A program made the position numbers and the translations under genes. Shown here piece by piece: positions 497-61,988 of a stretch of DNA of 64,000 nt. Numbering within the stretch: the first letter of the stretch is position 1; every line of letters starts with the position of its first letter. The DNA is from a virus, in the IMG/VR virus record IMGVR_UViG_3300050821_006071, positions 1-64,000 of that record, one strand, 5' to 3'. The notes under the pieces were generated by a model, which ran no database searches, had not been told where the DNA came from, and was given only the letters and a program-made list of their open reading frames with translations.

Positions 497-684
497 TGTA
501 TTTTCCTTAACCCCAATACGGCAATAACCTTGTCTCTAGATCTGAGGACCATGTTTCCGTCATTGTCATGGCAGATGTGTTCTAGCGGGTTGCTGCTAAT
601 GCAGTTCCAAAGCTCACCGTTGCTAAAACCGCATATATCGCACCGCAGAAAGCACAGATCGCCATTATGCTCGTGAATGATCAC
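493..684 (-). CDS. Small putative zinc-binding protein
   Basis: 63 aa, family not recognised. It contains CDIC near residue 15 and further Cys/His (NCIS, HICH) that could complete a zinc site. It overlaps both neighbours by 4 nt in the leftward operon, which supports it as a real gene. It lies between a virion-type protein and the HNH nuclease. Confidence 0.6.
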   Translation of the reverse strand: MIIHEHNGDLCFLRCDICGFSNGELWNCISSNPLEHICHDNDGNMVLRSRDKVIAVLGLRKIQ

Positions 685-1040
685 GGCTGGTACACGAAGC
701 TGTAGCCATTGGTGTTAAGAATATCCCAAACGCTTTGGGTAGAACCCGTGGCAAAGTTTACGACCATCGCCGATGCATTTACCGTTGGCATGCCTCGGAT
801 ATTGATGATGATGTCCCAATTCAGGACTCCAGCGGAAAAGTTGTCCGAGGCGACTAGCTGAACTGTCGCTGTGCCGTTAACCAATGTCCCGTGCTGAACA
901 TTCGGCACGATCGGCAGCGTTCCTGGCGTTCCTGGCCACATGACGCCATTCGGCGAAAAGACGTACATGCCTTCGGGCGGAACCACGTCTACAGGTGATG
1001 CAGTAGCGGTTATCGTCACGCTGACTACGTTGTAAGTCAT
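681..1040 (-). CDS. Putative virion-associated beta-rich protein
   Basis: 119 aa, rich in Val, Thr, Ser and Asn with alternating hydrophobic residues, no Cys or charged clusters. This is typical of Ig-like or jelly-roll phage surface or tail accessory proteins. No specific family recognised. The start at 1040 faces the divergent gene at 1110, leaving a 69-nt intergenic gap that must hold both start regions. Confidence 0.65.
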   Translation of the reverse strand: MTYNVVSVTITATASPVDVVPPEGMYVFSPNGVMWPGTPGTLPIVPNVQHGTLVNGTATVQLVASDNFSAGVLNWDIIINIRGMPTVNASAMVVNFATGSTQSVWDILNTNGYSFVYQP

Positions 1041-2018: not shown

Positions 2019-2219
2019 CAGAATCGAGGCTAGCAGGTAATGAAGCCAGGTCCAATCGGCAAAATCAAAGGGATGGCCAAAGTTAATTCGCTCTAGGCCC
2101 CAAAACTGCCAAGAGAGCGTGTCCCTGGCATTGAAAAGAAGGCCGAAGGCCTCAGCTATGCCGAATCCGCCAACAAACCAGATGAGCCAATACCAGCCCC
2201 AACCAGAAATGTGGTTCAC
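1965..2219 (-). CDS. Small membrane protein
   Basis: 84 aa from a GTG that overlaps the upstream stop (GTGA), so translation is probably coupled. Two hydrophobic segments are visible: WYWLIWFVGGFGIAEAFGLL near the N-terminus and a C-terminal WLHYLLASILLVGLVWLGGH. Trp-rich. Function unknown; a role in lysis or exclusion is possible but not shown. A longer frame from 2345 exists but has no better start. Confidence 0.65.
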   Translation of the reverse strand: MNHISGWGWYWLIWFVGGFGIAEAFGLLFNARDTLSWQFWGLERINFGHPFDFADWTWLHYLLASILLVGLVWLGGHIILGIWR

Positions 2220-2584
2220 GTTATAACCGCGCTTCCCGCCAAGATGGCCGAGATGTCTTGTGTGGCGCCCAAGGAAAAATAGAGTTTGAACTTGCGGGCT
2301 GGTATTGCCAAGCCCGCTATGGTTCCCGAAACCTGCCAAAACCAATCGGTGTTGATGTTCAGGTTGTCGTGGCTCAGCAGGTTTATGGTAAACGCGCCTA
2401 CGCCGTTAAGCGTGGCACCCAACGGCGCGGTTGCTCCGCAAGCTCGCAAGGGAACTGCCCAAAGCAAGTCAGTCATCTGGAATTGAAGGGCACCAGTCGC
2501 GTAACCGCCCGAGTTGGTGTCAAAAAACGTGCCCGACACGGTAACCGTGTTGAAGGTCGTGCCGCCAATAACAATTGTCGGCAT
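2216..2584 (-). CDS. Putative virion-associated protein downstream of pup
   Basis: 122 aa, beta-rich, low in charge, with repeated hydrophobic/Thr/Ser strands (TFNTVTVSGTFF). This resembles small minor tail or head-fibre proteins of actinophages; no exact family recognised. It begins 3 nt after the pup stop and ends overlapping the membrane-protein start, so it is part of the same transcript. Confidence 0.65.
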   Translation of the reverse strand: MPTIVIGGTTFNTVTVSGTFFDTNSGGYATGALQFQMTDLLWAVPLRACGATAPLGATLNGVGAFTINLLSHDNLNINTDWFWQVSGTIAGLAIPARKFKLYFSLGATQDISAILAGSAVIT

Positions 2585-2587
2585 CTC

Positions 2588-2776
2588 TTACTCGCCACCA
2601 CGCTGGATATACCCTTTGACGAACGCTTCGGCCTCAGGCTCTAGCACTCGGTCAATCTCGTCTAGCAGGTCTAGAACGTCCTGGCCAAGTTCCTCGTTGC
2701 GCAGGTCTTTGGCCTCGGCCTCGGGTTGCTCTTCGGTGTTTTCGCGCTGAGCCGCTTGCTTTTGGGCTTGCTTCAT
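2588..2776 (-). CDS. pup: Prokaryotic ubiquitin-like protein Pup
   Basis: 62 aa. The sequence shows the Pup hallmarks in order. An acidic/polar, probably disordered N-terminal half is followed by the helix core (residues 33-47: DVLDLLDEIDRVLEP), then EAEAFVKGYIQRGGE at the very C-terminus. Known family biology: PafA ligates the gamma-carboxylate of the C-terminal Glu of Pup to substrate lysines, and the helix docks on the Mpa/ARC ATPase for proteasomal degradation. Pup ending in Gln must first be deamidated by Dop. This copy already ends in Glu, so it should be ligation-ready. No PafA, Dop, Mpa or proteasome gene is in the window, so the host machinery must be used. It sits 3 nt after a 1060-aa tail-type gene and 3 nt before another virion-type gene, implying late co-expression. 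Confidence 0.93.
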   Translation of the reverse strand: MKQAQKQAAQRENTEEQPEAEAKDLRNEELGQDVLDLLDEIDRVLEPEAEAFVKGYIQRGGE

Positions 2777-2779
2777 TGG

Positions 2780-5700
2780 TCATACCGCCACGATGTATAG
2801 GTTGCCGTAAAGGCATGTGCTCACGTTAAGGGAAGCGTCTATGACGTCGGCTCGCCACCATTGGGTTGTGGCCGAGGTCGCTGCCGCGTGTGGTAGCTTC
2901 CACGAGACCTCGCCGGCTAGCGCTTGTATAACGGTCAAACCGCTGCCAACGGTGTATACGGTTGCTGACGAATCCAAGGCTTGCTCGTTGGCCTTGACGT
3001 ATAGCTTTACTGTCAAACTCGCCAAATTAAGCGGCTGGTTGTACTGCGTGAGGTTGAGAATGAATGTCGTGTCATTGCCTTGCAGCGCTACGAGATTCTG
3101 AGCGGTAGCCATGTTTTTGTCATTCCATCCGCCGTAAACAGCCGTTGCTGTGCCAAGTTGGTTTGTAGCCGTACCGCCGTACGGCACAGCAGCCTGAGCC
3201 GAGCCACCGAAAAGAACCGTGGAGGCTCTGCCGCCTAGGGCAGGCCCATAGAGGATTACCTGCGCGCCGATGATGACCAACGGCGCTACGAACGTCGCTG
3301 AGCCGCTGAGAACCGAGGGTGATACAACCACCCCGGTAGTGAGCGACACAGCCCCAAACGCTGTCGTGGCGCTCAGCAAGGGTGCTGTAGCCGTTTCGCC
3401 AGCGCTGGTTACCAGCAACGTGAACGATGCCGACACGCTGAGAGCCGTAGGCGTCACAGTCGCGTTGCCACCCGCTGAAACAGTGGGTGCTGGGAACGAT
3501 GCAAGGGTGCTAAGCGTGCCGAGTGCAACAGTCTCATCTATTCTGATCAACGCTGGGCTGAATGCTGCTGTTGCCGCCAACGTGGTGGGCGTAGCGCTTG
3601 AACCCTCGTTGACAATAACCGCAAAACCTGTTGCCGTGAAAACAGCCGTAGGCGTTACGGTGGTCCCGGTTTGAACTGTCAGGCTCGGGAACGATGCTGA
3701 AACACTCAGCGTAGTGGGTATGACGCTCTCGCTGGCAACCACTGTCGAGCTTGCGAATGCCACCGAGGCGGTTAGCGCCGTAGGCGTAACGACAGAACCC
3801 GTGCTAATGGCGGGCATCACGAACGATGCCGACAGACTTAGCGTTGATAGCGCTACCGTCTCGCTGGCGTTAATCGTCAGCGGGCCAAACGCAACCGAGG
3901 TGTTCAGCGCTGTCGTGGTTACGTTAGCGTTCCCGCCGGCGGATATCGTCGGTGTCGGGAAACTAACCGTTCCGCTGAGGACAGCAAGCGGGACAACCTC
4001 GCCTGTTGATATCGTAGGTGCTGAAAAAGCGGTGGTTCCGGCTAGAACCGCTGTAGTGACTACCTCACTGGCTGAAATAGCTGATGCAGGGAAAATGGCC
4101 GTGACGAGCAACGCCCCGGAAACCGTGTTGCAATCAGCCCGGAACGCAAGAGCCGGGAACGCAGCTGATCCTGCTAGAACCGCCGTTGTCTCCGTCTGGC
4201 TCTGGTTAATTACAGGAGCCGGGAACGTCACGGCGCCACTTAGCGACGATGGCGCTACAGTCTCACCTGCATTGACCACCGAGGCGCCAAAAGCTACTGT
4301 GCCGCTGAGGACAACAGGGGCGGCTATTTCGCTTGCCGATATGGCCAGCGCCGGGAATGACGCCGTGGTCGTGAGAACCGACGACGTGAATTGTTCACCC
4401 GTGGTGATCGCCACAGCCGGGAATGCGGTGGTGCCGGCGAGAACCGCTGTGGTGGCAGTCTCGTCAGCGCGGATAGCCGCTGCCGGGAATGTCACGGCAC
4501 CGTTGAGCAAAGAAGGCGTAACGACGGAGCCGGCGACCGTCTGGAAGCCGCTTGACCAAGGCGGCCAAGGAGTGAAAGGCTCCGCAACAAACGGCAATCC
4601 AGGGCGCTTACCGGGCAGGTAACGGGGTGGCTCCGGTGGCTGCAATCCTGGCGCTGCGCCACCCAGAGCGGTAACCGTAGCGGTCCATATGAAGCATGGC
4701 TGGAAGCCATCTGAGGCGCTAGACACCACACGCTGAGTCCACGCCAGGCCACCGCCAGAAACCGTCATTGTAATACCGGTGCCTGAACCTGTACCACCGG
4801 CGACGACTAGCGCAACGAGGACGGACCCCACTGGTGGTGTGAAGTTTGTCGTTGACACTGTCAGCAGCGTGTCTGACTCAACCAAAGGCGGTGATGATGC
4901 ATCTATTGCGGGCGTGCTCCCACCGGACGGTTTAACCTCAAGCGCGGCCCAGTTAGAGTGATCGCCTATCGCTGCACCAGCACCAACCGTTACCGGGGTA
5001 CCGGAGGTTACCGCTCCCGTGTAAGACCCGTGCGCATAACTCCAGAGGTCAGTAGCATCCCCGCCATTGTCGAAATAGGCATTGTTAGTTGCTGCTGCCC
5101 CGAAACCAGTTGCCGCGTCATCGTAACTGATTGCAAATACAGGCAGTGAATTGGTTGAACTTGGATTGATGGAAGCTTGCGCTACAGCGCCAGTGCCCGA
5201 GCTTCCAGCTCCGGTAACACCGCCGCCTTCAATCGCTCCCGTTAGCACCTTGACTATCAGCGCCATACCACGGTTGGAGCTGGAGCCTGACTGAGTCGCG
5301 GTTATGATTGGGTCATTTGGGCCGGGGGTGGGAGCAATCGCAATCCACACGCCTGCATAGCTGCTGTTGGCTGCATTCGCCTCAGATAGCGGAGTCCATG
5401 TCACCCCACCACCGGAGACTGTCATTGTCTCAACACCGGTAGAGCTGGAAGCAGAGACAAGCGCTACAAGCAGCGATCCGCCTGGCGGAGCGAAGTCCGC
5501 AGTTGTAACAGTAGTATTAAGGTCGTCTTCCGCCACCGATGGAGCTGAAGTATCTTCAGCTAGAGTGCCATTCGGCAAGATTTCAGCGAGTGCGCAGCCG
5601 CCACCGCCTACAGGAGCCGACGCACCTACCGCAACGATGCCTGGAGTTCCAGTCGGTGCCGATGTGACGCAGTCGGCGAACCACTCAGTAACATTAGAAT

Positions 5701-5962
5701 CGAAATATGAATTGATTGTGGTATTTGCGAGTGCGGTTAGCGCAGTCGAGCCCTGAGAATCTATTGCGCCATACACAAGAGAACCGGTGACCGTAGTGGT
5801 CAACGTTGCTTGGTGCGCTGCCCCAACTGTGAAGTCGCACGACTGTGCGGCCGTAGCACCATTCTGAACGGCCGCTGCACCCGTTAGTACCTTGACAACT
5901 AGGCGTATGCCGTCAGATGTCGAGCCTCCTGATGTGGCGGTGACATGCATGCTGAATGACAT
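2780..5962 (-). CDS. Large repetitive virion/tail protein
   Basis: 1060 aa. The N-terminal ~440 residues contain three or more related beta-rich modules (motif GGGVTWTPL, then LVVALV..., SSNRGMALIVKVLTGA). A Pro-rich linker (about residues 445-470) follows, then nineteen ~22-residue repeats to about residue 895. The C-terminal ~130-residue domain (NDTTFILNLTQYNQPLNL...) resembles phage BppU/baseplate-type N-domains by its look, but this is uncertain. Low charge and high Ala/Thr/Val/Ser fit a virion surface fibre. It is the gene directly upstream of pup. Confidence 0.75.
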   Translation of the reverse strand: MSFSMHVTATSGGSTSDGIRLVVKVLTGAAAVQNGATAAQSCDFTVGAAHQATLTTTVTGSLVYGAIDSQGSTALTALANTTINSYFDSNVTEWFADCVTSAPTGTPGIVAVGASAPVGGGGCALAEILPNGTLAEDTSAPSVAEDDLNTTVTTADFAPPGGSLLVALVSASSSTGVETMTVSGGGVTWTPLSEANAANSSYAGVWIAIAPTPGPNDPIITATQSGSSSNRGMALIVKVLTGAIEGGGVTGAGSSGTGAVAQASINPSSTNSLPVFAISYDDAATGFGAAATNNAYFDNGGDATDLWSYAHGSYTGAVTSGTPVTVGAGAAIGDHSNWAALEVKPSGGSTPAIDASSPPLVESDTLLTVSTTNFTPPVGSVLVALVVAGGTGSGTGITMTVSGGGLAWTQRVVSSASDGFQPCFIWTATVTALGGAAPGLQPPEPPRYLPGKRPGLPFVAEPFTPWPPWSSGFQTVAGSVVTPSLLNGAVTFPAAAIRADETATTAVLAGTTAFPAVAITTGEQFTSSVLTTTASFPALAISASEIAAPVVLSGTVAFGASVVNAGETVAPSSLSGAVTFPAPVINQSQTETTAVLAGSAAFPALAFRADCNTVSGALLVTAIFPASAISASEVVTTAVLAGTTAFSAPTISTGEVVPLAVLSGTVSFPTPTISAGGNANVTTTALNTSVAFGPLTINASETVALSTLSLSASFVMPAISTGSVVTPTALTASVAFASSTVVASESVIPTTLSVSASFPSLTVQTGTTVTPTAVFTATGFAVIVNEGSSATPTTLAATAAFSPALIRIDETVALGTLSTLASFPAPTVSAGGNATVTPTALSVSASFTLLVTSAGETATAPLLSATTAFGAVSLTTGVVVSPSVLSGSATFVAPLVIIGAQVILYGPALGGRASTVLFGGSAQAAVPYGGTATNQLGTATAVYGGWNDKNMATAQNLVALQGNDTTFILNLTQYNQPLNLASLTVKLYVKANEQALDSSATVYTVGSGLTVIQALAGEVSWKLPHAAATSATTQWWRADVIDASLNVSTCLYGNLYIVAV
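3275..4543 (-). repeat. Nineteen degenerate 22-residue protein repeats
   Basis: Within the 1060-aa protein, a unit of the form T-x-x-L-x-x-x-x-x-F-x-x-x-x-I-x-x-x-E-x-V recurs about nineteen times with a period near 66 nt. Examples are TTAVLAGTTAFPAVAI, APVVLSGTVAFGASVV and TPTALSVSASFTLLVT. DNA identity between units is moderate, so the array is old or under protein-level selection. It probably forms a regular beta solenoid or fibre shaft. Confidence 0.8.
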
Positions 5963-6000: not shown

Positions 6001-6318
6001 CTAACCTACACCTACCACGCCGCATAGCTGGTCGCTGTTGAAAAGGTAGTTGTTATTTGCCCCGTTGCTCGCCAGTCCGTTCGCGATACGGAACAGAGAT
6101 ACGCCAGTGCCGCCCAGGTCAGTGGCGGCAGCCTTCAATAGCGTCACCTCCGCTTCGCTGTACCCGAGAGCGGTCATGTTGGCATCGGTAGACCACGGGG
6201 TGGCCTGGAGTAGCGCACAGAACGATGACCACTGTGCTAGGTTCTGCCGCAATGCAACCGCGAGTCCCCCGGCGCGTGAGTCGAAGTCGGCTTTAGTTGA
6301 CGGGAATCCTACTGACAT
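6001..6318 (-). CDS. Conserved-looking hypothetical protein in virion operon
   Basis: 105 aa. It begins MSVGFPSTKADFDSRAGG and reads as a helical protein (NLAQWSSFCALLQATPW; LGYSEAEVTLLKAAATDLGG). It appears related to short actinophage and actinobacterial proteins that accompany virion genes, but I cannot name a family. It lies in the leftward operon with 12-nt spacing to the upstream gene. Confidence 0.65.
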   Translation of the reverse strand: MSVGFPSTKADFDSRAGGLAVALRQNLAQWSSFCALLQATPWSTDANMTALGYSEAEVTLLKAAATDLGGTGVSLFRIANGLASNGANNNYLFNSDQLCGVVGVG

Positions 6319-6330
6319 TCTGAATCTTCC

Positions 6331-6915
6331 TTACGCGACTAGCTCACATGTGAACTCGTCACACGTGATCGAGGTCAGGGCAGTTGTCACGTTCGGTGTG
6401 ACTGCCACGCTCATGGTTTGCGGCGTGTTAGTGTTAAGAGCGGTTGCTGTCTGAACCACAGTCCTTAGCGCTGCCGTTACTGGGATAGGCACATCAGCCG
6501 CGAACACGGTAAGTGACGTCGGAAGCGTTAGCCTGCCTTGGCCCATGACTGTGGCAGCGGTGCCTGTTGGATTTGACATGGTACGGACAACACCCCAGTA
6601 GAGCATCTGCCACGGCCATGCAACAGACACGGTATTAGGGACTGTGATTGCGGAAGAGGCCGCCAGAACAGCCGGGGTGGTAGTAAGAGATGTGCCTTGG
6701 GCGTTCATGTAGAACCCCCACACTACCGTGGCGGTCGCCGCTGTTGTTATGATGTTGCCGCACGCAAAAAGTCGGATTCTCGTGCCGGACTGCCACATAC
6801 CAGGCCAGATGACTGTCTGCTGTGAGGTTATGTCAGTAATAGCCGCTGCTACAGCCGGAGTAGCAGAGACAATACCCATCGGCGGAACGGGGCCTGACCA
6901 TACAGTTGATGGCAT
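6331..6915 (-). CDS. Putative virion structural protein
   Basis: 194 aa, beta-rich, rich in Thr/Ala/Val with few charges. Looks like a decoration or fibre protein. Residues 40-60 (WPGMWQSGTRIRLFACG) suggest a jelly-roll entry strand. No exact family recognised. It is part of the same leftward operon. Confidence 0.65.
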   Translation of the reverse strand: MPSTVWSGPVPPMGIVSATPAVAAAITDITSQQTVIWPGMWQSGTRIRLFACGNIITTAATATVVWGFYMNAQGTSLTTTPAVLAASSAITVPNTVSVAWPWQMLYWGVVRTMSNPTGTAATVMGQGRLTLPTSLTVFAADVPIPVTAALRTVVQTATALNTNTPQTMSVAVTPNVTTALTSITCDEFTCELVA

Positions 6916-6951
6916 AGCTTTATGTCCAGGTGATTGCGGTGACGGTTGCGC

Positions 6952-7482
6952 TCACGCGGTAAGCGTCAATTGAGAAAGGCCAGAGCCGGACGGGGTTATC
7001 CCGAATGTTCCGGCTACCGTCGCGTACGATGCGCCGAAGCACAACAGCAACAGCATGGGCTTGTTAACCGGCGCCGTGATGCCATGAGCGTAGACGATGC
7101 AGCCGTAGATTCCGGTTAGCGTGGTGCTCGCCACCGAAAGCGGGTTGGTCCAGCTGTATTGCAGGTAGTACGGGCCGCTGCCGCCTTGCGCGAAGGTGGT
7201 CGTTACCGACGTCGCGCCTGCCGCTGCAACAGACAACTGAACACCACCGGTCGCCCAACCGGTGCCGGTCACCTCGTTGGTGTTCACCCAAGCAATGGTG
7301 CTCGTGGCGCCTCCGGTGGCAAGCTCGGTGGTGTAGTCGGTGCCGGTGATGCTGTGCAGAGACAGGTAGTTGGTCGAGTCCTGGCCAGTCGGCAGGATCG
7401 TCGCAGGCGAACCTGTCATGGCCGTGCCGGACATCATGTAAAGCAGTGACTGTGTATACCAGCCGGATTTGGTGAACGCCAT
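6952..7482 (-). CDS. Putative virion structural protein
   Basis: 176 aa, Ser/Thr/Gly-rich beta protein, starting MAFTKSGWYTQSLLYMM. This opening resembles small phage proteins that precede tail or decoration genes. It follows the 76-aa gene by 1 nt. No catalytic motif seen; structural role inferred from composition and context. Confidence 0.65.
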   Translation of the reverse strand: MAFTKSGWYTQSLLYMMSGTAMTGSPATILPTGQDSTNYLSLHSITGTDYTTELATGGATSTIAWVNTNEVTGTGWATGGVQLSVAAAGATSVTTTFAQGGSGPYYLQYSWTNPLSVASTTLTGIYGCIVYAHGITAPVNKPMLLLLCFGASYATVAGTFGITPSGSGLSQLTLTA

Positions 7483-29389: not shown

Positions 29390-29671
29390 CTACAGGTGCC
29401 GCAAACGGTGGCGCTGCTCTGCCGTCATCATATCGGTTTTGCCGGCGACGATTGCGGCAGTTACGCACGCGTCGCATAGCGGGTGTGTCTTGCTCCGCTC
29501 ACGTGCCTCGGGGGTTGGCTCGATTGTGGTTGCGGTGCCGTCTACGATTGCCACGTCGGGCGGTAGCCCTGTCTCAGGGTCTACGGCCATCATGTTCACG
29601 CAGTCAGGGCAAGCCGTTGCGCGCCTGCCGCATGCTGCGCAGGTGAACATCAGCGTAGCTATTCCAGTCAT
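29390..29671 (-). CDS. Cys-rich protein downstream of integrase
   Basis: 93 aa. CAACGRRATACPDC and later CDAC are zinc ligand pairs. AGGGAAAG lies upstream. It starts inside the last 68 nt of the integrase gene, so it is likely co-transcribed with it. Could be a small accessory of recombination, but nothing proves this. Confidence 0.6.
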   Translation of the reverse strand: MTGIATLMFTCAACGRRATACPDCVNMMAVDPETGLPPDVAIVDGTATTIEPTPEARERSKTHPLCDACVTAAIVAGKTDMMTAEQRHRLRHL

Positions 29672-31232
29672 GATCTTTCCCTCTTTCCCTTATGCGTCCT
29701 AACCTGACGATGATGGTTCGCGCGTCTACGACATTGATGCGCCGTAGGTCGCCGTTGGCCTGTTGTACCGCCGTGTTCCAAGCCACGGGGTTAACCCTTT
29801 CGCTTAGCGTCTTGGCATCGCGCTCAGGGTCGCTGGTGTCTATCGTCACGGTAGGTGGCTCGCCTCGGTGGTCGGCAGCACGAGCGTAGACCTTCCAGCC
29901 CATCCCCGTTAGGTACTGCCGTTTTTCCGTGGCATCAAGCGTGGCCCAGTGCTCGGCTACCGTGGTGCCGGTGTCTATCTGCTGCCACGCGTCGGGCAGG
30001 GGCTTGATGGTGGCGAGTTCCGCGCGGATTTCCGCTATCCGCGCGTCGTAGTCTGCCGCCTCGATGTCGAGGGCCGACGCCTGCCGCTTGAGTTCCTTGC
30101 GCCGTCGTTCGCCGTCGTCACCCTGTATCAGGGTCAGAGAGATGTGTGGCAGCATGCCGTAGGCCTCGGTCACGGCCTCATCAACAACCGCTTCGAGTTC
30201 GGCAGTCCTGATCATCCTGACCTCAGGGTTGCCCGAGCAGGCAAAGCACCTGTAGTAGGGCCACACCGTAGAGCCACGCTTGGTGTTGTGGCCATACAGC
30301 GGCCCTGAGCAGACAGCGCAGAACACCACTCCGCTCAGCGCTCGGGCATCGTAGCGGTTGACCTTGGGCTTGCTTGCGGCGTTGATGATGGGCTGTAGCT
30401 CAGTCCACGTTTCGGTGTCGATGACCTCGGGGGGCGCGTTCCGCAGAATCATGTAGATCGAGCTAGCGTCCCATTTCGGGGTGCCCTTCTTGCGCTTTTG
30501 GTCTGCTCTTGCCGTCGGTATGCCCTCTGCCGTCAAGTCGCGTGCGATCTGGCAGGCTGACTTACCAGCGAGGATGTCCCGAGCCATGCGGTTCGCCACG
30601 GCCTTTTGCCGTTCGTCAACGACCACCTCATAGTGGTCGTCTACCTTGACGGGCTTGGTTCCGTACTTGGTGGAACCCCCGCCCCAGTAGCCCATAGCCT
30701 TTAGCTTGGTGGCCGCCTCTGAACGCCGTTCCCCCATCCGTTCGCGTTCGAACTCGGCGAACATCACGAGGATGTTCGCGATGAGACGCCCCACGGGGGT
30801 AGAGAGGTCAAAGCCTTCCGCTACCGAGATGATCGTCTTGCCGTTGGCCTCACACCACTGCAAGATGCGCTGAAAGTCCAGCAACGATCGGGTGAGCCGA
30901 TCGAGCTTGGCGACTACGAGCACATCCCACAGTTTGACTAGCTTAGGGTCAGTGAGCCATGGCTCTAGGTCTCGGTTCCATGCGCTGACACTGCCGCTCA
31001 CGTCGAGGTCTTCCACGATGGCCACAAGGTGGCCGTTGCGGAGCTTGACTGACAGCGTGATCGAGTCGCGCTGACGCTCGGGGCTGGTAGTCTCGTCTGT
31101 CAGGTGGCTGAGCCGGACCGCGCCGAGGTACCGCACATCCTCTGCCGGCTTGCCGCCAGCCGGCCCCGTGGCCTTTGGCCTTGGGTTACGCGGGGCCGGC
31201 GCCTTGCCCCTTATGCTCTGACCTGCGCTCAT
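29604..31232 (-). CDS. int: Large serine recombinase (integrase)
   Basis: 542 aa. Resolvase domain at residues ~35-185: RLSHLTDETTSPERQRDSI contains the catalytic Ser, VLVVAKLDRLTRSLLDF the catalytic Arg pair, and the long helix follows. Recombinase domain at ~190-300 (MGYWGGGSTKYGTKPV; GIPTARADQKRKKGTPKW). Zinc ribbon FCAVCSGPLYG ... YRCFACSG at ~310-340, then a coiled-coil region (about 375-400) and C-terminal domain. It catalyses attP x attB integration; excision needs a directionality factor. The likely attP lies 68 nt upstream of its start. Confidence 0.95.
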   Translation of the reverse strand: MSAGQSIRGKAPAPRNPRPKATGPAGGKPAEDVRYLGAVRLSHLTDETTSPERQRDSITLSVKLRNGHLVAIVEDLDVSGSVSAWNRDLEPWLTDPKLVKLWDVLVVAKLDRLTRSLLDFQRILQWCEANGKTIISVAEGFDLSTPVGRLIANILVMFAEFERERMGERRSEAATKLKAMGYWGGGSTKYGTKPVKVDDHYEVVVDERQKAVANRMARDILAGKSACQIARDLTAEGIPTARADQKRKKGTPKWDASSIYMILRNAPPEVIDTETWTELQPIINAASKPKVNRYDARALSGVVFCAVCSGPLYGHNTKRGSTVWPYYRCFACSGNPEVRMIRTAELEAVVDEAVTEAYGMLPHISLTLIQGDDGERRRKELKRQASALDIEAADYDARIAEIRAELATIKPLPDAWQQIDTGTTVAEHWATLDATEKRQYLTGMGWKVYARAADHRGEPPTVTIDTSDPERDAKTLSERVNPVAWNTAVQQANGDLRRINVVDARTIIVRLGRIRERGKDHDWNSYADVHLRSMRQARNGLP

Positions 31233-50800: not shown

Positions 50801-53206
50801 ATAGGCAGGCAACCCTAGGTTGCTGAATGCGCGGTTCCACGTGATCAGGGGCAACGAGGTCGGACTCCCGACCGTACCGTTAGCGTAGGTCCCGTATTGG
50901 CTGTTGCTCGCTACGTTGGACCACGCGACGCCCTTTTGGTACGTTTGGGTGCTGACAGCGGCTTGGTTTACAAGGTACGTGTCTATGAGCTGGTAGTGGA
51001 GATCAGACGTGTAGGTGTCGGGCGGCAGGTTAACGTCTGGGCTGCGGTAGCCCATGCGCCAGTCACGCGTCGAGAATTGCAGCGTGCCGTTAGCCGGCAC
51101 GAACAGAAGCCCTTGCTCCGCCTGCTCATAGACTTGCATGGCGCTAAGCGCGTTTGAGCCTGAGATGTCAAAATAATCAGCCAGGGAGAGACCAGCGCTT
51201 TGCCCCACCAGGCCATTCCAAAATGACGGGATTCCCGCATACTGCCCGAGGGCCGCAACACAGTTGTCTGTGGTTTGCTCCCACATGCCATACTGGCCTA
51301 GCTGAAAATGCTGCTGTATCTCGGCCTTGGTCAACAGGCGTTGGTAGACGCTGACAAGAGAGATGTTCCCATACCAGCAACCGCAACCGCCGTATGCCCC
51401 GCCAACGGTGATGGTGTCAAACACCTGGCCGTTGGGGGTGAGGGTGAACGTCCCGTAATCGGTGTTGTCTAGGGTGAGGTCAACGGTGCCCGGAGTAGCC
51501 GGCGTGCCTCCCGTGATGCTCAACACGCAGTGATGAACCAGGGGTTTCGTTTCGCCGTTCACCAGCCCGGTGCTGACGATGTGTACTCCCGTCGGGAGTC
51601 CGCTGCCCGAGGCGCCCCAATTGACGTTAGAGAACCCTCCGGGTTGCGTCATGATGCCGGCGCTGAATACGGTGGTGAAACCGCCTATCGGGCAGAGGCC
51701 GGCAAAGATGTTGGCGTTCGTTCGGGTGCTGCCGAGGCCTATCGCCACGAATGGCCCCGTGTTGCTGTTGCTGAGCGGCCAGATGTTGGGATCTACGCTA
51801 AACCAGAATTCAATCGCGTAGTTGGCCCCGACTGACGTAGGGGCGATGAAGCCCGTTTGCGCGGTCAGCGAACCCGTGAGCGTGTAGCCAAGGCTGCCGA
51901 CAAAGGTATCCTGAAAACTGCCCGTGGTGATGACAGGAGTAAAGTACGCGCTGGCCAGCGGGGTGGAGTACGGCCCGACCATGACAGGGTCTAGTGCGTT
52001 AACCCCCGTGCTGACCACGTTACCGGGACCCCAGAATTCCGACTCGTCAGCCCTGCCAGGGCTTGACGCGTCGGCCAGGGTCTCAACGCCACCGTTAGAG
52101 TTGCGCCATGCGATCGAGGCACTGGCCGAGGTGGTAGAGGGTATGGCATGCAAGACCGGCCCGTTGTTGCCGCTGGTCTCGGCCGCATTCCCCAAGCTTC
52201 CCGCGTTGTTGGGGTCATCTAGTGCCCAATGCAGCCATGGGCTTGAGTTCAAGACGGCTTGCTTGGTCCAACACTGTAGATTCTGTTGTCGGCTGAGGGA
52301 CGCAAGCACGTCAGCGCATGTGATTGACGCTACATCCTCGGTGCCTGCCGTCGGAGAGATGGCATAATCTATCTCCGCTACAGGGCCATCAAAGCGCGTG
52401 TGCCAGACGCCGTTTTGGTCTGGGACGTTGATTTGGCACCTGGCACCAAGGCCGGGAGTACCACCATAGGTGACGATCGGGGAACCAGTGTTTCCAGGGG
52501 TAAACCACCCCGTATCGTTCTGCACATAAAATTGCGCTTGCCCTGCCGAGATTTCCGATATGCCATTTTGTCGGCCTCGGCCAACGCTGATGTTGTCGCT
52601 GTAGCGAACCCATGGCGTCATGTCGAGGAAGTCGCTGCCCGCTATGGACTGGGCTGAGAACGCGGGGTTAATCCAGTCAATCAGCACTTGCGCGGGCACT
52701 TGGGCCGCAAATTCGAGGTCAATCGCGAAGTACTCGTTTGCGAGCACGGTGGTTGCGACCCATACGGCAACCTTCATGTAGGCAGCGTTGGCAGGCGAGG
52801 TAACTGCCGCCACCTGGGATTGCCACACGTTGGCAACGGTCGCATTGACCTTGCCCCACGAGTCTGATATGTGGGTGTGGCCCGAGTCATACCAGCGCAC
52901 GCCAATGAATGCGTTGTGGCCAGCGGTGATGGTCAGAACCCCGCCTGACACGTCGTACCCCTTGCTAGGGGAGCAAGGGTAGAACCCGGTTGAGATGATG
53001 GAGTCGCCAATTGCAGTCGCCTGCCACATCAAGGCGTAAGAACCGCTCAGGGCGGCCGAGGCGACGAACCCGCCTCCCCCGTTCGTCCTGATGGGCGCGT
53101 TCGCATTGGTGTCGGCCGCCCACGTGAACCCCGTCGTTTCGAAGTCGGAATCGGCGAGAGTCAGGATGTTGCCCGGTAGGACGGATGGGGGAACGGTGTA
53201 CGTCAT
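47840..53206 (-). CDS. Large minor tail protein with LamG-like domains
   Basis: 1788 aa. N-terminal ~170 residues: carbohydrate-binding-like beta sandwich (ETTGFTWAADTNA). Residues ~180-330 resemble baseplate hub proteins (RYSDNISVGRGRQNGISEIS). A first LamG-like fold spans ~455-640 (YAIEFWFSVDPN; ISLVSVYQRLL) and a second ~910-1075 (WSAECWVNLNG; WHHLAATWNGTTITLYVDG). Further repeats and a C-terminal TNF-like part follow. It probably combines baseplate attachment and host glycan binding. Overlaps the tape measure start by 4 nt. Confidence 0.8.
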   Translation of the reverse strand: MTYTVPPSVLPGNILTLADSDFETTGFTWAADTNANAPIRTNGGGGFVASAALSGSYALMWQATAIGDSIISTGFYPCSPSKGYDVSGGVLTITAGHNAFIGVRWYDSGHTHISDSWGKVNATVANVWQSQVAAVTSPANAAYMKVAVWVATTVLANEYFAIDLEFAAQVPAQVLIDWINPAFSAQSIAGSDFLDMTPWVRYSDNISVGRGRQNGISEISAGQAQFYVQNDTGWFTPGNTGSPIVTYGGTPGLGARCQINVPDQNGVWHTRFDGPVAEIDYAISPTAGTEDVASITCADVLASLSRQQNLQCWTKQAVLNSSPWLHWALDDPNNAGSLGNAAETSGNNGPVLHAIPSTTSASASIAWRNSNGGVETLADASSPGRADESEFWGPGNVVSTGVNALDPVMVGPYSTPLASAYFTPVITTGSFQDTFVGSLGYTLTGSLTAQTGFIAPTSVGANYAIEFWFSVDPNIWPLSNSNTGPFVAIGLGSTRTNANIFAGLCPIGGFTTVFSAGIMTQPGGFSNVNWGASGSGLPTGVHIVSTGLVNGETKPLVHHCVLSITGGTPATPGTVDLTLDNTDYGTFTLTPNGQVFDTITVGGAYGGCGCWYGNISLVSVYQRLLTKAEIQQHFQLGQYGMWEQTTDNCVAALGQYAGIPSFWNGLVGQSAGLSLADYFDISGSNALSAMQVYEQAEQGLLFVPANGTLQFSTRDWRMGYRSPDVNLPPDTYTSDLHYQLIDTYLVNQAAVSTQTYQKGVAWSNVASNSQYGTYANGTVGSPTSLPLITWNRAFSNLGLPAYNYWPDPCLNDNVAWQVNTRSAQRLIMGSLTVDLLTLDSLSGLTVSQLYAIDINNMVSLLSYDAMVLSYSPVSYYALDDGVGADLAGNGGTLTPSIGGLVAYGASPPPVVTSPSCAYLSNVGGVLTSTYAPSGGGNWSAECWVNLNGVSLSGTVFLYSSANTSGGDNAGFALYLSTNAPRAAFGNGTTFATCSASVLPLTGWHHLAATWNGTTITLYVDGQFASNASLSGTLAAAVGKTVTIGGLPGGSGDFFTGLIGQCALTPVAFTAAQVFARYGAAQNGQPAGFANLLGANELFIEGVTEVIGLQTHTLQFYTSPVSTQRAWIPGDPVYGRLGVTSRIGISQPDLSTPQAIGKDVSHDAGSPYWPPQFVTKPTGIYRLGTLAPSGTSATIAINSGTMRSYQGDALLVQIMCPAASTITVGPDTEGNTYTLASSVTLPSGYVQYVFVATNCAPMNAADTVPVTMSVSQQYTMSLIGIQNVSALDQVTTASGTSATASVTSGTMAVPYELEVTLAANAGGLDVGVPGGWTLGADFNPSSVYESVLWKQGSTAATDAFSGGYTGSVAWGAIMLTFRVRPNSLNNPSGNSRSFIGSLEIRGLHDTLATALHPPLAVAGLYNHIQTIPTGNNVNPVVVWDTIYTDSAAGFAAVPAYPNWYTCMVPGYYEIMGSIPYLNVSSGDVGTRTGYIAVAQQAAQAVAAGTANPTTVNSYVCPVGEQHSTQNWNIPTAVCPSTQVYLGLGDMVALCTTSSEGGNDTIENLTGAPQMSLRWCGYGTLNDQVMINSSLGGGGSVTQLPASGPAATSSGASAKRHYATSWTANATYSYYGTWSSWTPQLRATNSDVEQGLAPVGIIGQPNTTGCQFGFVVFPYAAMRTALTGATITSVSLQCTNILTYYTSGTLILGWSTRTSWGSSLTPSSATDHINSQQVGFSLGQAKSVGLLSWANAFATTATSLFIGDNTSGGFQYLTDWGAPATWTLTISYTK

Positions 53207-56200
53207 GATAGCCCTAGTGGTTTATTTCCCATGTGCTTCTTAAGGACCCTAAGTTGCTGCCAAACCTCACGCGCGACTTCATCTGGGCTGTTGGACGGGT
53301 GGGCATAGACATTAACGATAACGGAACCTGAATCAGGCACAGCTTGGGCGGCGTTCCCGCCGCTTACTGCTGAAACCGCGTTCTGGACCTTGGCCCCTAT
53401 GGCGGCCCCAGCGGAAGTCAGAAGCCCCGGAATGCTGGCACCAATGGCCGACAAGAAGCCCTTACCGGGTTTCCAGCCGGTTGTTAGTCCTTGGAGGAAT
53501 CCAGACATGATGGCTACACCATGCGGCACAAGCAATTGTGCATCGTGGTCAAGCGGCCCCTTGAGGGAACTGATAATCCCTCCCAATGACTTCAGCCAAG
53601 ACGCAGGGCCGCTGTTCCACATGGCCTTCAGGCCATTCCAGAGGCCGTTTATGATTGACGCTCCGATGTTGTAAAGCAGCCTGCTAAGATCCCCTATCGC
53701 TCCCGTGATCAGGCCGCCAATGCCCTTGAAAAATCCGACGATGGTATTCCACGAGCTTTTTACCGCAGCGTAGACGGAGTTCCATGCGTTTTTGAGCACC
53801 CCCTCAACCACAGCGAGGGATGTATTGAACACGCCGGTTAGCGCGCTCCACCAGGTTGTGAAGAATGCCTTGATCGCATTCCAGACCTGAGACGCGACTA
53901 GCTTAACCTCGGCCCACGCTCGGCCCCATTTTCCGGTAACCAAGTCTATGCCAACGGTGAATATCCCGACTAGTACATCCCACCCTACTTTCAGGATGAG
54001 CTTTACGGCGGCCCAGGTGACTTTCAGGGCATCAACTACGATCGCCCATCCAATCTTCCAAACACCGACTAGCACGTCGCCCGCGACTTGGAATATCGCC
54101 GTGAGGATTGCCCACCCGACGCGCGCCGACGCTGTGATGACATCCCAGGCAGCGCGGAAAAGGGTGGTGGCCACGAGCCACAATACGCGCCAGGTCCCCA
54201 GTACCACCGTGCTGCCGACGCTGAATGCAACCTTGAGGACTTCCCAATCGAATTTCACCAGGGCGGCTACCACGTCCCAGACAGCATGGAACACAGCGGA
54301 TATTCCGGCCCACAGAATACGCCATTCGTCCTGAACAATGGCGCTGCCCACGTGGAACGCAGTTCGCAGGATGTCCCAGCCGGCCTTTGCCACGTTCACG
54401 ACCACGTCCCAAGTGGAGTGGAGCACGGCGGTCATTCCTGCCCACAGATCATGCCAGATCTGCTTAATGGTGTCGCCGTTTGTTTTCCACCACGAGTCGA
54501 AGCTACTTGAGACAAAGGTCTTGATCTTGTCGAATTCACGGATGGCCGGGCCTGCTAGGTCATCCCACACGCGGCTGAAGGTGGTGGCAATATAGTTCTT
54601 GACCTTGTCGAATTCCTGAATTACGGGGCCGGCGAAGTCGGCGAAAAGCCTCGTCACTTGCTGCCAGTGGGTGACGATGAGTGCGACAGCAATGCCAATC
54701 GGCCCGGTAAGGATGCCTATCAAGAGTGGCCAGTTGTGCTTTACCCAGTTAAAAGCAAAGTCAACGGCAACCAAGATGTCGTGCCATACGGCTATCCAGA
54801 AGTCGCGAAATGCGGCACTGTGCTCCCAAAGCATTACGAAACCAGCCACGAGGGCAACGATTCCGATTATTATAAGCCCTATTGGGTTGGCGAGGAATGC
54901 GAGGTTTAGCCCTTCTTGGGCTACTGTCGCTTCCTCGGTCGCTACCGTCTCGACCTCTTGGGCAGCAAACAGCGCGAGGAACTTGCTAACCATCTCGGTT
55001 GCAAAGACGACAACTTTCTTGCCAGACTTCCACAACACCTCGAAACCCTCGGCCGCGCCTTTGACGCCATCTTCCAGCTTCTTCAGCGCAAAGCCCGCGA
55101 GGACCGTCCCGATAATGCCTCCGAGAATTCCCGCAACAGCGGCGTTCCTCTGGAGTACCTGCATAAAGGAATTGAGGCCCTTCATGACGGCCAGGGCGGC
55201 CGGGAGAAGTTTTATCCCGAGGCTTATGACCAGTGCGTCAGCGCCGGCCTTGAGGTCGGCGAACTGCTGTGCCGATGTCTTGTTTGTCGCGTCCCAAGCT
55301 GCTCCGAAGCTCTTCGCGCCGTCGGTCAGAACCTTTTGCTTGGAATCCAGTCGGGCAACTTGGTCAATAAGTACGGCAATCCCAGCACCAGCCTTTTTCC
55401 CAAAAAGCTCGGTGACGATTGCCCCTGTTTCAGTCGAGGTAATCCCCGCTGCCTTCATCCGCTGGACGAGAAGGTTTATCGTCGCAACTGTGCCGTGTAG
55501 GCTCTGGTATTTTCCCAGCTCGCCAATCGATAGCCCGAGTTCTTTCAGAGCCGGTCCAGCCGTCTTAGCCTGAACGGCTATGGATTGGACCGATACCCGT
55601 AGCTGGGTGCCCGCCATGGCACCCCTGATATTGTTGTCGCCAAAGGTAGCGAGAATGGCGCCTACGTCGTTTAGCGTTGATCCATATATTTTAACGTTGC
55701 TCAGGAATCCAGTGCCCAAAGCATCGGAAAGATCCTGCATCGTCATATCGCCGGCGCCCACGGTCGCGTTAAGCGCGCCCATTGCGGACTGATAATTCTG
55801 CACGCCCGGAATACCACTCGCGATGGCAGCGCCAAGGGCATTCGTAACATCAACGAGATTTGCGCCACCGACCCTAGCACCCTCGGCCGCAATCTTCACG
55901 GCGAGAAGCATCTGAGGCCCAGTGCCGCCAATTGAGGCCATGCTGCTGGCGACGTGGTAGAAAGCCTCGGCCAGTGAATCCGGATTTTCTCCGATTTGCC
56001 CGGCTAGCGCGAGAATCTGGGGGGTCATCGTGTTCAGCTGAGCCTGTGTCAGGCCAGCCTGTGTATGGATGCGCTCCATAGCCGCATTGAACCCGGAGGC
56101 TTTATAAATGCCGATGCCCAGTACAGCGCCGATGCCAACTAGCGCCGGCAACAGCAACCCGTTGAGCTTTGACCCAAAACCGCCGGCCTTGGCGCCTTCA

Positions 56201-56508
56201 TCCTCCAAGGTGGTGCTGACCCTGGCGCCCGATGCCGCTAGGGCATCGGACTCTGCGGTAATTTTTGTCAGATCCCCTGTTGTCCCCGACATGTTAACCC
56301 GGACGGTTGCACCCTTATCGGTGATCGCCTTGATCTCCGCTTCGAGTGCAGCGAGCTTTTCCTCGGTGATGTCTCCGCCGATGAGGTTAACCCTGACGAC
56401 TGCATCACCGGTAAGCTTGTCTTTGCTTGCGCCGAGCTTTGACATCCCGGAAATAGCACTGTCAATACCACTCGTGAGAACGGCCATGCGCACGGTTTTA
56501 GTTGGCAT
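53203..56508 (-). CDS. Tape measure protein
   Basis: 1101 aa. N-terminal ~120 residues of short coiled-coil/beta (SKLGASKDKLTGD), then the phage_min_tail core (MERIHTQAGLTQAQLNTM, FYHVASSMASIG, VDVTNALGAAIASGIPG, GTGFLSNVKIYGSTLNDVGA). Hydrophobic segments around 440-580 (AAVAGILGGIIGTVLAGF; LIIIGIVALVAGFVMLW) are followed by many ~35-residue Trp-rich repeats (HDLWAGMTAVLHSTWDVVV...). Length predicts a tail of roughly 160-170 nm. Follows the tail chaperone pair. Confidence 0.93.
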   Translation of the reverse strand: MPTKTVRMAVLTSGIDSAISGMSKLGASKDKLTGDAVVRVNLIGGDITEEKLAALEAEIKAITDKGATVRVNMSGTTGDLTKITAESDALAASGARVSTTLEDEGAKAGGFGSKLNGLLLPALVGIGAVLGIGIYKASGFNAAMERIHTQAGLTQAQLNTMTPQILALAGQIGENPDSLAEAFYHVASSMASIGGTGPQMLLAVKIAAEGARVGGANLVDVTNALGAAIASGIPGVQNYQSAMGALNATVGAGDMTMQDLSDALGTGFLSNVKIYGSTLNDVGAILATFGDNNIRGAMAGTQLRVSVQSIAVQAKTAGPALKELGLSIGELGKYQSLHGTVATINLLVQRMKAAGITSTETGAIVTELFGKKAGAGIAVLIDQVARLDSKQKVLTDGAKSFGAAWDATNKTSAQQFADLKAGADALVISLGIKLLPAALAVMKGLNSFMQVLQRNAAVAGILGGIIGTVLAGFALKKLEDGVKGAAEGFEVLWKSGKKVVVFATEMVSKFLALFAAQEVETVATEEATVAQEGLNLAFLANPIGLIIIGIVALVAGFVMLWEHSAAFRDFWIAVWHDILVAVDFAFNWVKHNWPLLIGILTGPIGIAVALIVTHWQQVTRLFADFAGPVIQEFDKVKNYIATTFSRVWDDLAGPAIREFDKIKTFVSSSFDSWWKTNGDTIKQIWHDLWAGMTAVLHSTWDVVVNVAKAGWDILRTAFHVGSAIVQDEWRILWAGISAVFHAVWDVVAALVKFDWEVLKVAFSVGSTVVLGTWRVLWLVATTLFRAAWDVITASARVGWAILTAIFQVAGDVLVGVWKIGWAIVVDALKVTWAAVKLILKVGWDVLVGIFTVGIDLVTGKWGRAWAEVKLVASQVWNAIKAFFTTWWSALTGVFNTSLAVVEGVLKNAWNSVYAAVKSSWNTIVGFFKGIGGLITGAIGDLSRLLYNIGASIINGLWNGLKAMWNSGPASWLKSLGGIISSLKGPLDHDAQLLVPHGVAIMSGFLQGLTTGWKPGKGFLSAIGASIPGLLTSAGAAIGAKVQNAVSAVSGGNAAQAVPDSGSVIVNVYAHPSNSPDEVAREVWQQLRVLKKHMGNKPLGLS

Positions 56509-61031: not shown

Positions 61032-61988
61032 TCAGGTGGCGTTGTTGCTGAAGTAGGCCGCCGCGCGAAGGTCGTTAGACCTTGCGTCCATACGGATATA
61101 ACCAAGGTAGCCAATTTGCAAGTAGTCGGCATAACGCTCGGTAAGGCGCATCATGGTAGCGCCGTTAACCTGGCGTGCGACCATGGCCGTCTTGAAGTCC
61201 CCGAAAAGCAGTCCGCCGGCGGTTGATGCCGTGGTGGAGACGTTAGACGTATTTTGGTCAACGACAACCGGATACCCGTACAAAGTGTCGGGCTGACCGG
61301 GCGCAACGGCAGGAGACCACAACGGGTGCCCATATGCATCGGTGATTGAACGGAGCATTGCAAGGGTGATGTCATTCGCCACGAAAATGCAGCGGCCGGT
61401 GTTCCTGTAGGCAGGGTCAACGGTGGCGATCATGCCAAGCACGTCGTCAAATCCAATGAGGCCGGCACCAAGCTTGGTGGTTGCCGTAGTGCCGCCAAGA
61501 ATCGTGAACGCCTTGCCGCCTGCTGTTGCCGCCCAGTTGCCTGACGTGCCAGAGAGGTAAACCCCTCCGAGGGCAGGAGCTGACTGGTGACCACGCGCAA
61601 CAAGGGCCGTCTCGATGCCGAGGAAAGCGCTAGAACCTGTGCCCGAGTGGATCTCTGCCGCAACCTTACGGCCGATGGATTCGCCAATTCTATCATTGAC
61701 AAATCCGTCAAGATCGAATGCCGAATCATTAATCAACTGAACCGACGCGAGAATGACGCCAGAAACGATGGTCCAGGCGTTAAGCATGCCCTGACCGAAC
61801 TGGTAGTCAGTGCCGTTAGAGTCACCACCGAAGCCGAGTTGCTGCGCTTCGGTGATGTACCTACCAACGATCTGAGTTGGGTCAACAGTAGGCCAGGGCA
61901 TGGGCTGACCAGAGTCAGTCTGGATTAGCTGGATATAGGGCAAAATGCCCCCGTATGCCTTCAGGGCAATTTGCAAGTTGTGCCAAAA
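61032..61988 (-). CDS. Major capsid protein, 3' exon
   Basis: 318 codons, in frame with the 5' exon after removal of the intron. FWHNLQIALKAYGGILPYIQ continues the HK97 A/P-domain start; later VSGVILASVQLINDSAFDLD, VAAEIHSGTGSSAFLGIETA, VATVDPAYRNTGRCIF-type P-loop and E/G-loop regions. Ends LRAAAYFSNNAT. The open frame continues upstream to 62003 (MSNKS) but that part is intronic. Confidence 0.88.
   Translation of the reverse strand, partial: FWHNLQIALKAYGGILPYIQLIQTDSGQPMPWPTVDPTQIVGRYITEAQQLGFGGDSNGTDYQFGQGMLNAWTIVSGVILASVQLINDSAFDLDGFVNDRIGESIGRKVAAEIHSGTGSSAFLGIETALVARGHQSAPALGGVYLSGTSGNWAATAGGKAFTILGGTTATTKLGAGLIGFDDVLGMIATVDPAYRNTGRCIFVANDITLAMLRSITDAYGHPLWSPAVAPGQPDTLYGYPVVVDQNTSNVSTTASTAGGLLFGDFKTAMVARQVNGATMMRLTERYADYLQIGYLGYIRMDARSNDLRAAAYFSNNAT

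What the first reader, a model, noticed from the sequence alone, without database searches (positions are those of the whole stretch)
2588..2776. Phage-encoded Pup, ligation-ready, inside the virion operon
A complete 62-aa Pup (helix DVLDLLDEIDRVLEP, C-terminus GGE) sits 3 nt from tail-type genes on both sides and would be made late. No PafA, Dop, Mpa or proteasome gene is present, so it must act through host pupylation. Ending in Glu it bypasses Dop deamidation. Possible roles: tagging of host proteins for degradation, decoy for PafA/Mpa, or attachment to virion proteins (compare bacterial ubiquitin-like tagging of phage tails). This looks like an undescribed phage strategy.
Basis: partly seen in the sequence, partly recalled or inferred. 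Interest (0 to 1): 0.92.

Follow-up and report, generated by a model that had tools for sequence, protein, structure and literature searches.

The report
Phage-borne Pup tag beside terminase genes
A virus of an actinobacterium carries its own copy of Pup, the small tag its host attaches to proteins to mark them for destruction; dozens of unrelated phages also carry Pup and some carry the unfoldase that reads the tag, yet none carries the enzymes that attach it, so phages probably steer the host's protein-disposal system.

Summary
The ORF is real: 62 aa, minus strand, 2588-2776, Pfam Pup E=1e-16, with 3-nt gaps to both neighbours. It lies in a 70.6-kb temperate siphophage that has no PafA/Dop, Mpa or 20S proteasome gene. 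It is not a singleton. IMG/VR scans gave 49 further viral records with Pup, plus Streptomyces phage Dagobah (annotated as Pup, not discussed in its paper): 36 distinct phage Pups including this one. All 51 records lack PafA/Dop. In 15 of the 36, Pup lies within 2.5 kb upstream of the large terminase on the same strand, across seven terminase lineages. Phage Pups are under purifying selection and keep the PafA-groove residues and ligatable C-terminus, but 28% lose the lysine before GG[E/Q] that every sampled cellular Pup keeps; the window has Arg. Ending in Glu is not special: phages and hosts are both near half Glu, half Gln. Some phages encode a full Mpa/ARC unfoldase with the proteasome-docking tail: one T4-like phage has both Pup and Mpa, and another lineage has Mpa directly upstream of terminase. 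No IMG/VR contig gave a confirmed PafA/Dop. Most likely, phages feed their own Pup into host PafA to redirect Pup-dependent unfolding or degradation. Conjugation and targets are inferred, not shown.

The parts
2588..2776 (-). phage pup: 62-aa Pup ending GGE; Arg at the position equivalent to Mtb Pup K61
   Evidence: PF05639 E=1.1e-16; TIGR03687 E=4.9e-14; PDB 3m91
2780..5962 (-). 1060-aa beta-rich repeat protein directly upstream of pup (3-nt gap), probable virion/tail protein; C-terminal 120 aa BppU_N-like
   Evidence: (E=0.021, below cut-off); homologue in the related 97-kb phage
2216..2584 (-). 122-aa beta-rich protein directly downstream of pup (3-nt gap), unclassified
   Evidence: no family hit; no viral relative found; poor model
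681..1040 (-). 119-aa protein without lysine, homologous to a late-region protein of the related phage G001
188..496 (-). HNH endonuclease; in a related phage its homologue is directly upstream of TerS, implying that the contig ends join and pup lies about 2.85 kb upstream of TerS
6001..7482 (-). further co-directional small beta-rich genes upstream in the same block (6001-6318, 6331-6915, 6952-7482)
   Evidence: no family hits above cut-off
61032..62003 (-). major head protein, used to find relatives (56-79% identity in the two relatives that also carry Pup)
53203..56508 (-). tape measure protein (siphophage)
29604..31232 (-). serine integrase (temperate phage)

Best explanation
The gene makes a functional phage Pup that exploits the host's Pup-proteasome pathway. 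Host PafA would ligate it through its C-terminal Glu (Gln-ending phage Pups first being deamidated by host Dop) to lysines of host and/or phage proteins. The host's Mpa/ARC (in some phages the phage's own Mpa) would then unfold the tagged proteins and, where a 20S proteasome exists, feed them to it. Extra Pup made from the terminase/virion block would raise or redirect Pup-dependent turnover during infection. SHOWN: a complete Pup; conservation of ligation and docking residues; purifying selection; recurrence in unrelated phages; absence of PafA/Dop from every Pup phage searched; standalone phage Mpa/ARC with intact ATPase motifs and proteasome-docking tail; repeated position upstream of terminase. 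INFERRED: translation, conjugation by host PafA, targets, benefit, and timing.
For: Pup identity. 36 distinct phage Pups in 51 phage records. Across them the last 28 residues follow the cellular pattern: Phe(-11), Gln(-5) and Gly(-2) 36/36; D(-21), L(-18), E(-17) 97%; final residue E/Q 36/36. A decoy for the Mpa coiled coil alone would not need the ligatable GG[E/Q] end. dN/dS 0.06-0.33 in seven close phage Pup pairs. No PafA/Dop in any of 51 records, and an IMG/VR scan with a PafA alignment gave no confirmed hit. A T4-like phage (gp17, gp18, gp20, gp23, UvsY, UvsW, gp46/47) carries Pup and a full Mpa/ARC (TIGR03689 3e-185, above the equivalog cut-off; ends GQYL). A second phage lineage has Mpa/ARC just upstream of TerL, Walker A/B and Arg motifs intact, ending GQYL or GMYL; cellular ARC ends GQYL in 54/57. 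Delivery of tagged proteins is what Pup and Mpa have in common. Pup within 2.5 kb upstream of TerL: 5 of 21 records of at least 30 kb against 0.41 expected, P about 5e-5, and seven TerL lineages below 35% identity.
Against: No experiment. Targets unknown. The host of this phage is inferred only: nearest TerL is a Pontimonas phage (43%), then Streptomyces phages. Hosts already make Pup (158 of 160 Pup-positive actinobacterial genomes have exactly one copy), so what extra Pup adds is not obvious. The lysine before GG[E/Q], invariant in sampled cell Pups, is lost in 10 of 36 phage Pups, so phage Pup is not simply a copy of the host's. Most Pup phages lack Mpa (1 of 36 has it). Terminase-proximal slots often collect accessory genes, so position alone does not prove a late role. 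Dagobah carries Pup in its replication/lysis region.
Confidence: 0.55

Rival explanations
1. Decoy or competitor: free phage Pup occupies host PafA, Dop and Mpa, so that host pupylation of phage proteins, or of factors that restrict the phage, stalls.
For: Binding residues conserved. Phage Pups often lack the lysine before GG[E/Q]. Mycobacteriophage proteomes are enriched in lysine deserts, which PMC10665810 reads as avoidance of pupylation.
Against: The ligatable end residue E/Q is kept in 36/36, and half end in Gln, a poor PafA competitor before deamidation. Standalone phage Mpa with intact ATPase and docking motifs points to productive use of the pathway, not blockade.
Confidence: 0.22
2. 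Pup is attached to phage virion or packaging proteins (terminase, prohead, tail) and acts in assembly, quality control or scaffold turnover.
For: Recurrent position beside TerS/TerL and in virion blocks in seven terminase lineages. In the window it sits between beta-rich genes, the upstream one probably a virion protein.
Against: Virion proteins of this phage are lysine-poor, though Arg is equally depleted. Pup is absent from at least one substantial relative (69 kb), so it is not an essential assembly factor. Dagobah carries Pup away from virion genes.
Confidence: 0.1
3. Passenger cargo: a host-derived gene that sits in an accessory-gene slot near the terminase with little function.
For: Patchy presence among relatives, and different slots in three related phages.
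Against: dN/dS 0.06-0.33, recurrence in at least seven lineages, conserved C-terminus, and a phage-only motif [AP]KDLxNEEL shared by four phages and absent from 150 cell Pups.
Confidence: 0.08
4. Artefact: host DNA mis-binned as phage.
For: One INPHARED record (MT835496) is indeed a mislabelled bacterial chromosome piece with dop-pup-pafA.
Against: None of the 51 phage Pup records contains PafA/Dop, whereas 75 of 80 cellular Pup loci have dop or pafA within 5 kb. Pup is embedded in phage operons and is present in the isolated phage Dagobah.
Confidence: 0.01

Closest known systems
Cellular Pup (prokaryotic ubiquitin-like protein, PF05639 / TIGR03687), e.g. Mtb Pup in 3m91 and 4bjr
   Same: Length, degenerate N-terminus, helix DLLDEIDxVLExxAExFV, Q-x-G-G-[E/Q] C-terminus
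   Different: Encoded by a phage without dop, pafA or mpa; Arg (not Lys) before GGE; NEEL segment not found in 150 cell Pups
Streptomyces phage Dagobah HUN42_00036 'ubiquitin-like protein Pup' (MT711977)
   Same: Standalone phage Pup ending GGE with no ligase
   Different: 78 aa with an internal insertion; lies in the replication/lysis region, not near terminase; not discussed in its paper
Mpa/ARC proteasomal ATPase (TIGR03689)
   Same: The phage versions found here have the coiled-coil, OB and AAA regions and the GQYL tail
   Different: Encoded by phages, upstream of TerL or in a T4-like genome, without other Pup-pathway enzymes; not present in the window phage
Viral ubiquitins of eukaryotic viruses, e.g. 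baculovirus v-Ubi (own knowledge, an analogy)
   Same: A virus carrying its own copy of the host's protein tag while relying on host conjugation enzymes
   Different: Unrelated protein and chemistry; bacterial host
Bacterial ubiquitin-like (ISG15-like, Bil) conjugation to phage tails (own knowledge)
   Same: Small modifier linked to phage virion biology
   Different: Host-encoded defence with a beta-grasp modifier; here a phage-encoded, intrinsically disordered Pup

Membership tests
Pup (PF05639 / TIGR03687) | Profile match over the curated cut-off | tested here: met
   61.9 bits against 27; 52.0 against 41.45
Pup (PF05639 / TIGR03687) | C-terminal G-G-[E/Q] | tested here: met
   ends RGGE
Pup (PF05639 / TIGR03687) | Helical PafA/Mpa-binding segment with the invariant residues | tested here: met
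   LLDEIDRVLEPEAEAFV; 36-phage and 73-cell comparison; aligns to 3m91
Pup (PF05639 / TIGR03687) | Lysine directly before GG[E/Q] (universal in sampled cells, not a formal criterion) | tested here: not met
   Arg in the window; K in 26/36 phage and 73/73 distinct cell Pups
Pup (PF05639 / TIGR03687) | Covalent conjugation to lysine by PafA | not testable with these tools
   needs biochemistry
Complete Pup-proteasome locus (dop-pup-prcBA-pafA with mpa) | Adjacent dop/pafA/mpa/prc genes | tested here: not met
   PF03136, PF00227 and PF16450 absent from the 70.6-kb record
Phage accessory gene under selection | Conserved in independent phages, with dN/dS below 1 | tested here: met
   36 distinct phage Pups; dN/dS 0.06-0.33 in other phage pairs; window pair too diverged to measure
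Virion structural protein | Present in virions | not testable with these tools
   no proteomics available

The most novel reading that the evidence does not exclude
Phages of Pup-using bacteria run a general strategy of commandeering the Pup-proteasome system by supplying its tag (Pup) and/or its unfoldase (Mpa/ARC), never its ligase, from a conserved slot beside the terminase genes: a phage-directed protein-degradation programme in bacteria, parallel to ubiquitin hijacking by eukaryotic viruses.
Probability: 0.45. Interest if true: 0.95.

Novelty: new variant of a known kind. Interest (0 to 1): 0.86.

Why it matters
Pupylation is the main known protein-tagging degradation system of actinobacteria, and no role in phage infection was found in the literature searched. 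A recurrent phage Pup, and a phage Mpa, would show that phages manipulate it, would make the question 'does pupylation matter in phage infection?' directly testable in an isolated lab phage (Dagobah on Streptomyces coelicolor), and would offer natural Pup variants as tools.

Tried and rejected
Single-sequence scan of IMG/VR with the window Pup found nothing; an alignment was needed. MT835496 was first taken for a phage Pup and rejected: dop-pup-pafA chromosome piece. Glu ending as a phage adaptation: rejected. Lysine avoidance in this phage's virion proteins: inconclusive, because Arg falls equally. Relatives of the 122-aa downstream gene in IMG/VR: none, and its fold gave no usable model. Fold of the BppU-like domain: mostly generic Ig-like sandwiches in the PDB, phage tail proteins among the BFVD hits. 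Host through prophage relatives: only weak MCP matches in 3 of 396 actinobacterial genomes. Consensus promoters around the gene: no more than in shuffles. Literature searches for phage-encoded Pup: nothing.

Full report
OBSERVATION. The ORF at window:2588-2776 is on the minus strand and encodes a 62-residue protein ending GGE. It matches Pfam Pup with E=1.1e-16, well above the curated cut-off, NCBIfam TIGR03687 above its cut-off, and Mtb Pup bound to Mpa (3m91) in the PDB. It is separated by 3 nt from a 1060-aa gene upstream (2780-5962) and a 122-aa gene downstream (2216-2584), all on the same strand, so it is probably co-transcribed with them. The window is part of a 70,631-bp virus record with a siphophage head/tail set, DNA polymerase A, DnaB-like helicase and serine integrase, and a portal, prohead protease, TerS and TerL beyond the window. 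No PafA/Dop, proteasome or Mpa OB-domain gene lies anywhere in it.

NEIGHBOURS. The upstream protein is beta-rich and repetitive. Its last 120 residues are BppU_N-like (E=0.021, below cut-off), and a moderate AlphaFold model (pLDDT 72) matches phage minor tail, fibre and neck-passage proteins among BFVD entries. 'Tail-type' is therefore reasonable for the upstream gene and unproven for the 122-aa downstream gene. An HNH gene at 188-496 ends the block. In a related phage (L232) its homologue is directly upstream of TerS, which implies that the two ends of this contig join and that pup lies about 2.85 kb upstream of TerS (69859-70371 in the record). This is supported by one relative, not proven.

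PHAGE PUPS ARE WIDESPREAD. The isolated Streptomyces phage Dagobah has a gene annotated 'ubiquitin-like protein Pup'; its paper does not mention it. Alignment-based scans of IMG/VR gave 49 viral records. With Dagobah and the window that is 51 records and 36 distinct Pups, in genomes from siphophages to a 296-kb jumbo phage and a T4-like phage. None of the 51 records encodes PafA or Dop, while 75 of 80 cellular Pup loci have dop/pafA within 5 kb. Host DNA mis-binned as phage is thus excluded as a general explanation. One INPHARED entry, MT835496, is such an error. Many of these records are fragments, so absences in short ones weigh little.

POSITION. In 15 of the 36 distinct Pups the gene lies on the same strand within 2.5 kb upstream of the large terminase gene, across seven terminase lineages that share less than 35% identity. 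In the 21 records of at least 30 kb, 5 show this against 0.41 expected, P about 5e-5; the window record is not counted among the five. Three related phages (window, the 97-kb G001 and the 14-kb G031; MCP 56-79%, TerL 57-65% identical) each have Pup in the terminase/virion region but in different slots: TerS-Pup-membrane protein-TerL in G031, and among late genes in G001 and the window. A 69-kb relative lacks it. So Pup is accessory and mobile, but repeatedly placed with terminase and virion genes.

SEQUENCE. Phage Pups keep the residues that fill the PafA/Dop groove and the Mpa coiled coil: Phe(-11), Gln(-5), Gly(-2) in 36/36, and a final E/Q in 36/36. Close pairs show dN/dS 0.06-0.33. Two differences from cells stand out. 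First, the lysine before GG[E/Q] (K61 in Mtb Pup) is present in every sampled cellular Pup (73/73 distinct; 69/69 in a phylum-wide sample after excluding one mis-called ORF) but in only 26/36 phage Pups; the window has Arg (Fisher P 8e-7 on full-length sequences; phylogenetic non-independence not corrected). Second, four phages with otherwise different genomes share [AP]KDLxNEEL, which no cell Pup of 150 has, suggesting exchange of Pup between phages. By contrast the Glu end is not distinctive: 17 E to 19 Q in phages, about 45:55 in cells, and one near-identical phage pair differs in it.

PHAGE MPA. Checking the Pup phages for Mpa gave one hit. The T4-like record IMGVR_UViG_3300025886_001308 (gp23, portal, sheath, terminase, UvsY, UvsW, gp46/47) carries Pup between UvsY and UvsW and also a 531-aa Mpa/ARC (TIGR03689 E=3e-185, above the equivalog cut-off) ending GQYL, the proteasome-docking tail of cellular Mpa. 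A scan found more phage Mpa genes: T4-like relatives, and an actinophage-like lineage where Mpa sits directly upstream of TerL. Walker A/B, pore-loop and Arg motifs are intact, and the tail is GQYL, or GMYL in one. The held parts of these other loci contain no Pup; their whole records could not be searched. A PafA alignment gave no confirmed hit in IMG/VR. Phages therefore carry the tag and the tag-reading unfoldase, but no ligase was found.

MECHANISM. Pup and Mpa share one function: delivery of Pup-tagged proteins for unfolding and degradation. Retention of a ligatable end, half of them needing Dop, argues for use as a tag, not only as an Mpa plug. The best-supported model (0.55) is that phage Pup is ligated by host PafA and increases or redirects Pup-dependent unfolding/degradation during infection. 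Translation, conjugation, targets and timing are inferred. Rivals are a decoy (0.22; compare the lysine-desert argument for mycobacteriophages in PMC10665810), attachment to virion or packaging proteins (0.1), and passenger cargo (0.08).

HOST. The nearest TerL relatives are from Pontimonas and Streptomyces phages, so an actinobacterial host is likely. Of 396 sampled actinobacterial genomes 160 have Pup, 158 of them exactly one, so the phage brings a second copy to a host that most likely has its own.

NOVELTY. The protein is a member of a known family. Phage-encoded Pup has a precedent only as one undiscussed annotation found here, and no paper in the library searched describes its role. The recurrent use of Pup and Mpa without PafA/Dop appears undescribed.

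Noticed in passing
L271:267-1862(-), L010:9992-10168(+) (IMGVR_UViG_3300025886_001308): A T4-like phage encodes both a Pup (between UvsY and UvsW) and a full Mpa/ARC proteasomal ATPase ending GQYL.
   Followed up: yes
L274:598-2115, L278:9411-11018, L279:115-1626, L283:2245-3807, L284:2-787: A phage lineage carries Mpa/ARC directly upstream of its large terminase, with intact ATPase motifs and GQYL/GMYL tail and without PafA/Dop.
   Followed up: partly
L003 (MT835496.1): INPHARED 'Bacteriophage sp.' record is a bacterial chromosome fragment with the Pup-proteasome locus.
   Followed up: yes
L006, L007, L051 and the window: Phages of very different genome size (71 to 296 kb) share the Pup segment [AP]KDLxNEEL, absent from 150 cellular Pups.
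   Followed up: partly
L065 and L070: Nearly identical phage Pups, one ending GGE, the other GGQ.
   Followed up: partly
L057: A phage Pup ending QSGQ instead of GG[E/Q].
   Followed up: no
L002:9980-10216 and L025:2715-2951: Dagobah-type Pups have about 16 extra residues inserted before the conserved helix.
   Followed up: no
window:24737-25405: Fusion of DUF4406 and DUF6378 domains in one early gene.
   Followed up: no
window:8634-8705: Lone tRNA-Gln gene (TTG) between the two divergent gene blocks.
   Followed up: no
phages ON529867.1 and ON529863.1: Brevundimonas phages with a gene annotated 'proteasome-associated ATPase' (about 31% identical over 59% of the phage Mpa).
   Followed up: no
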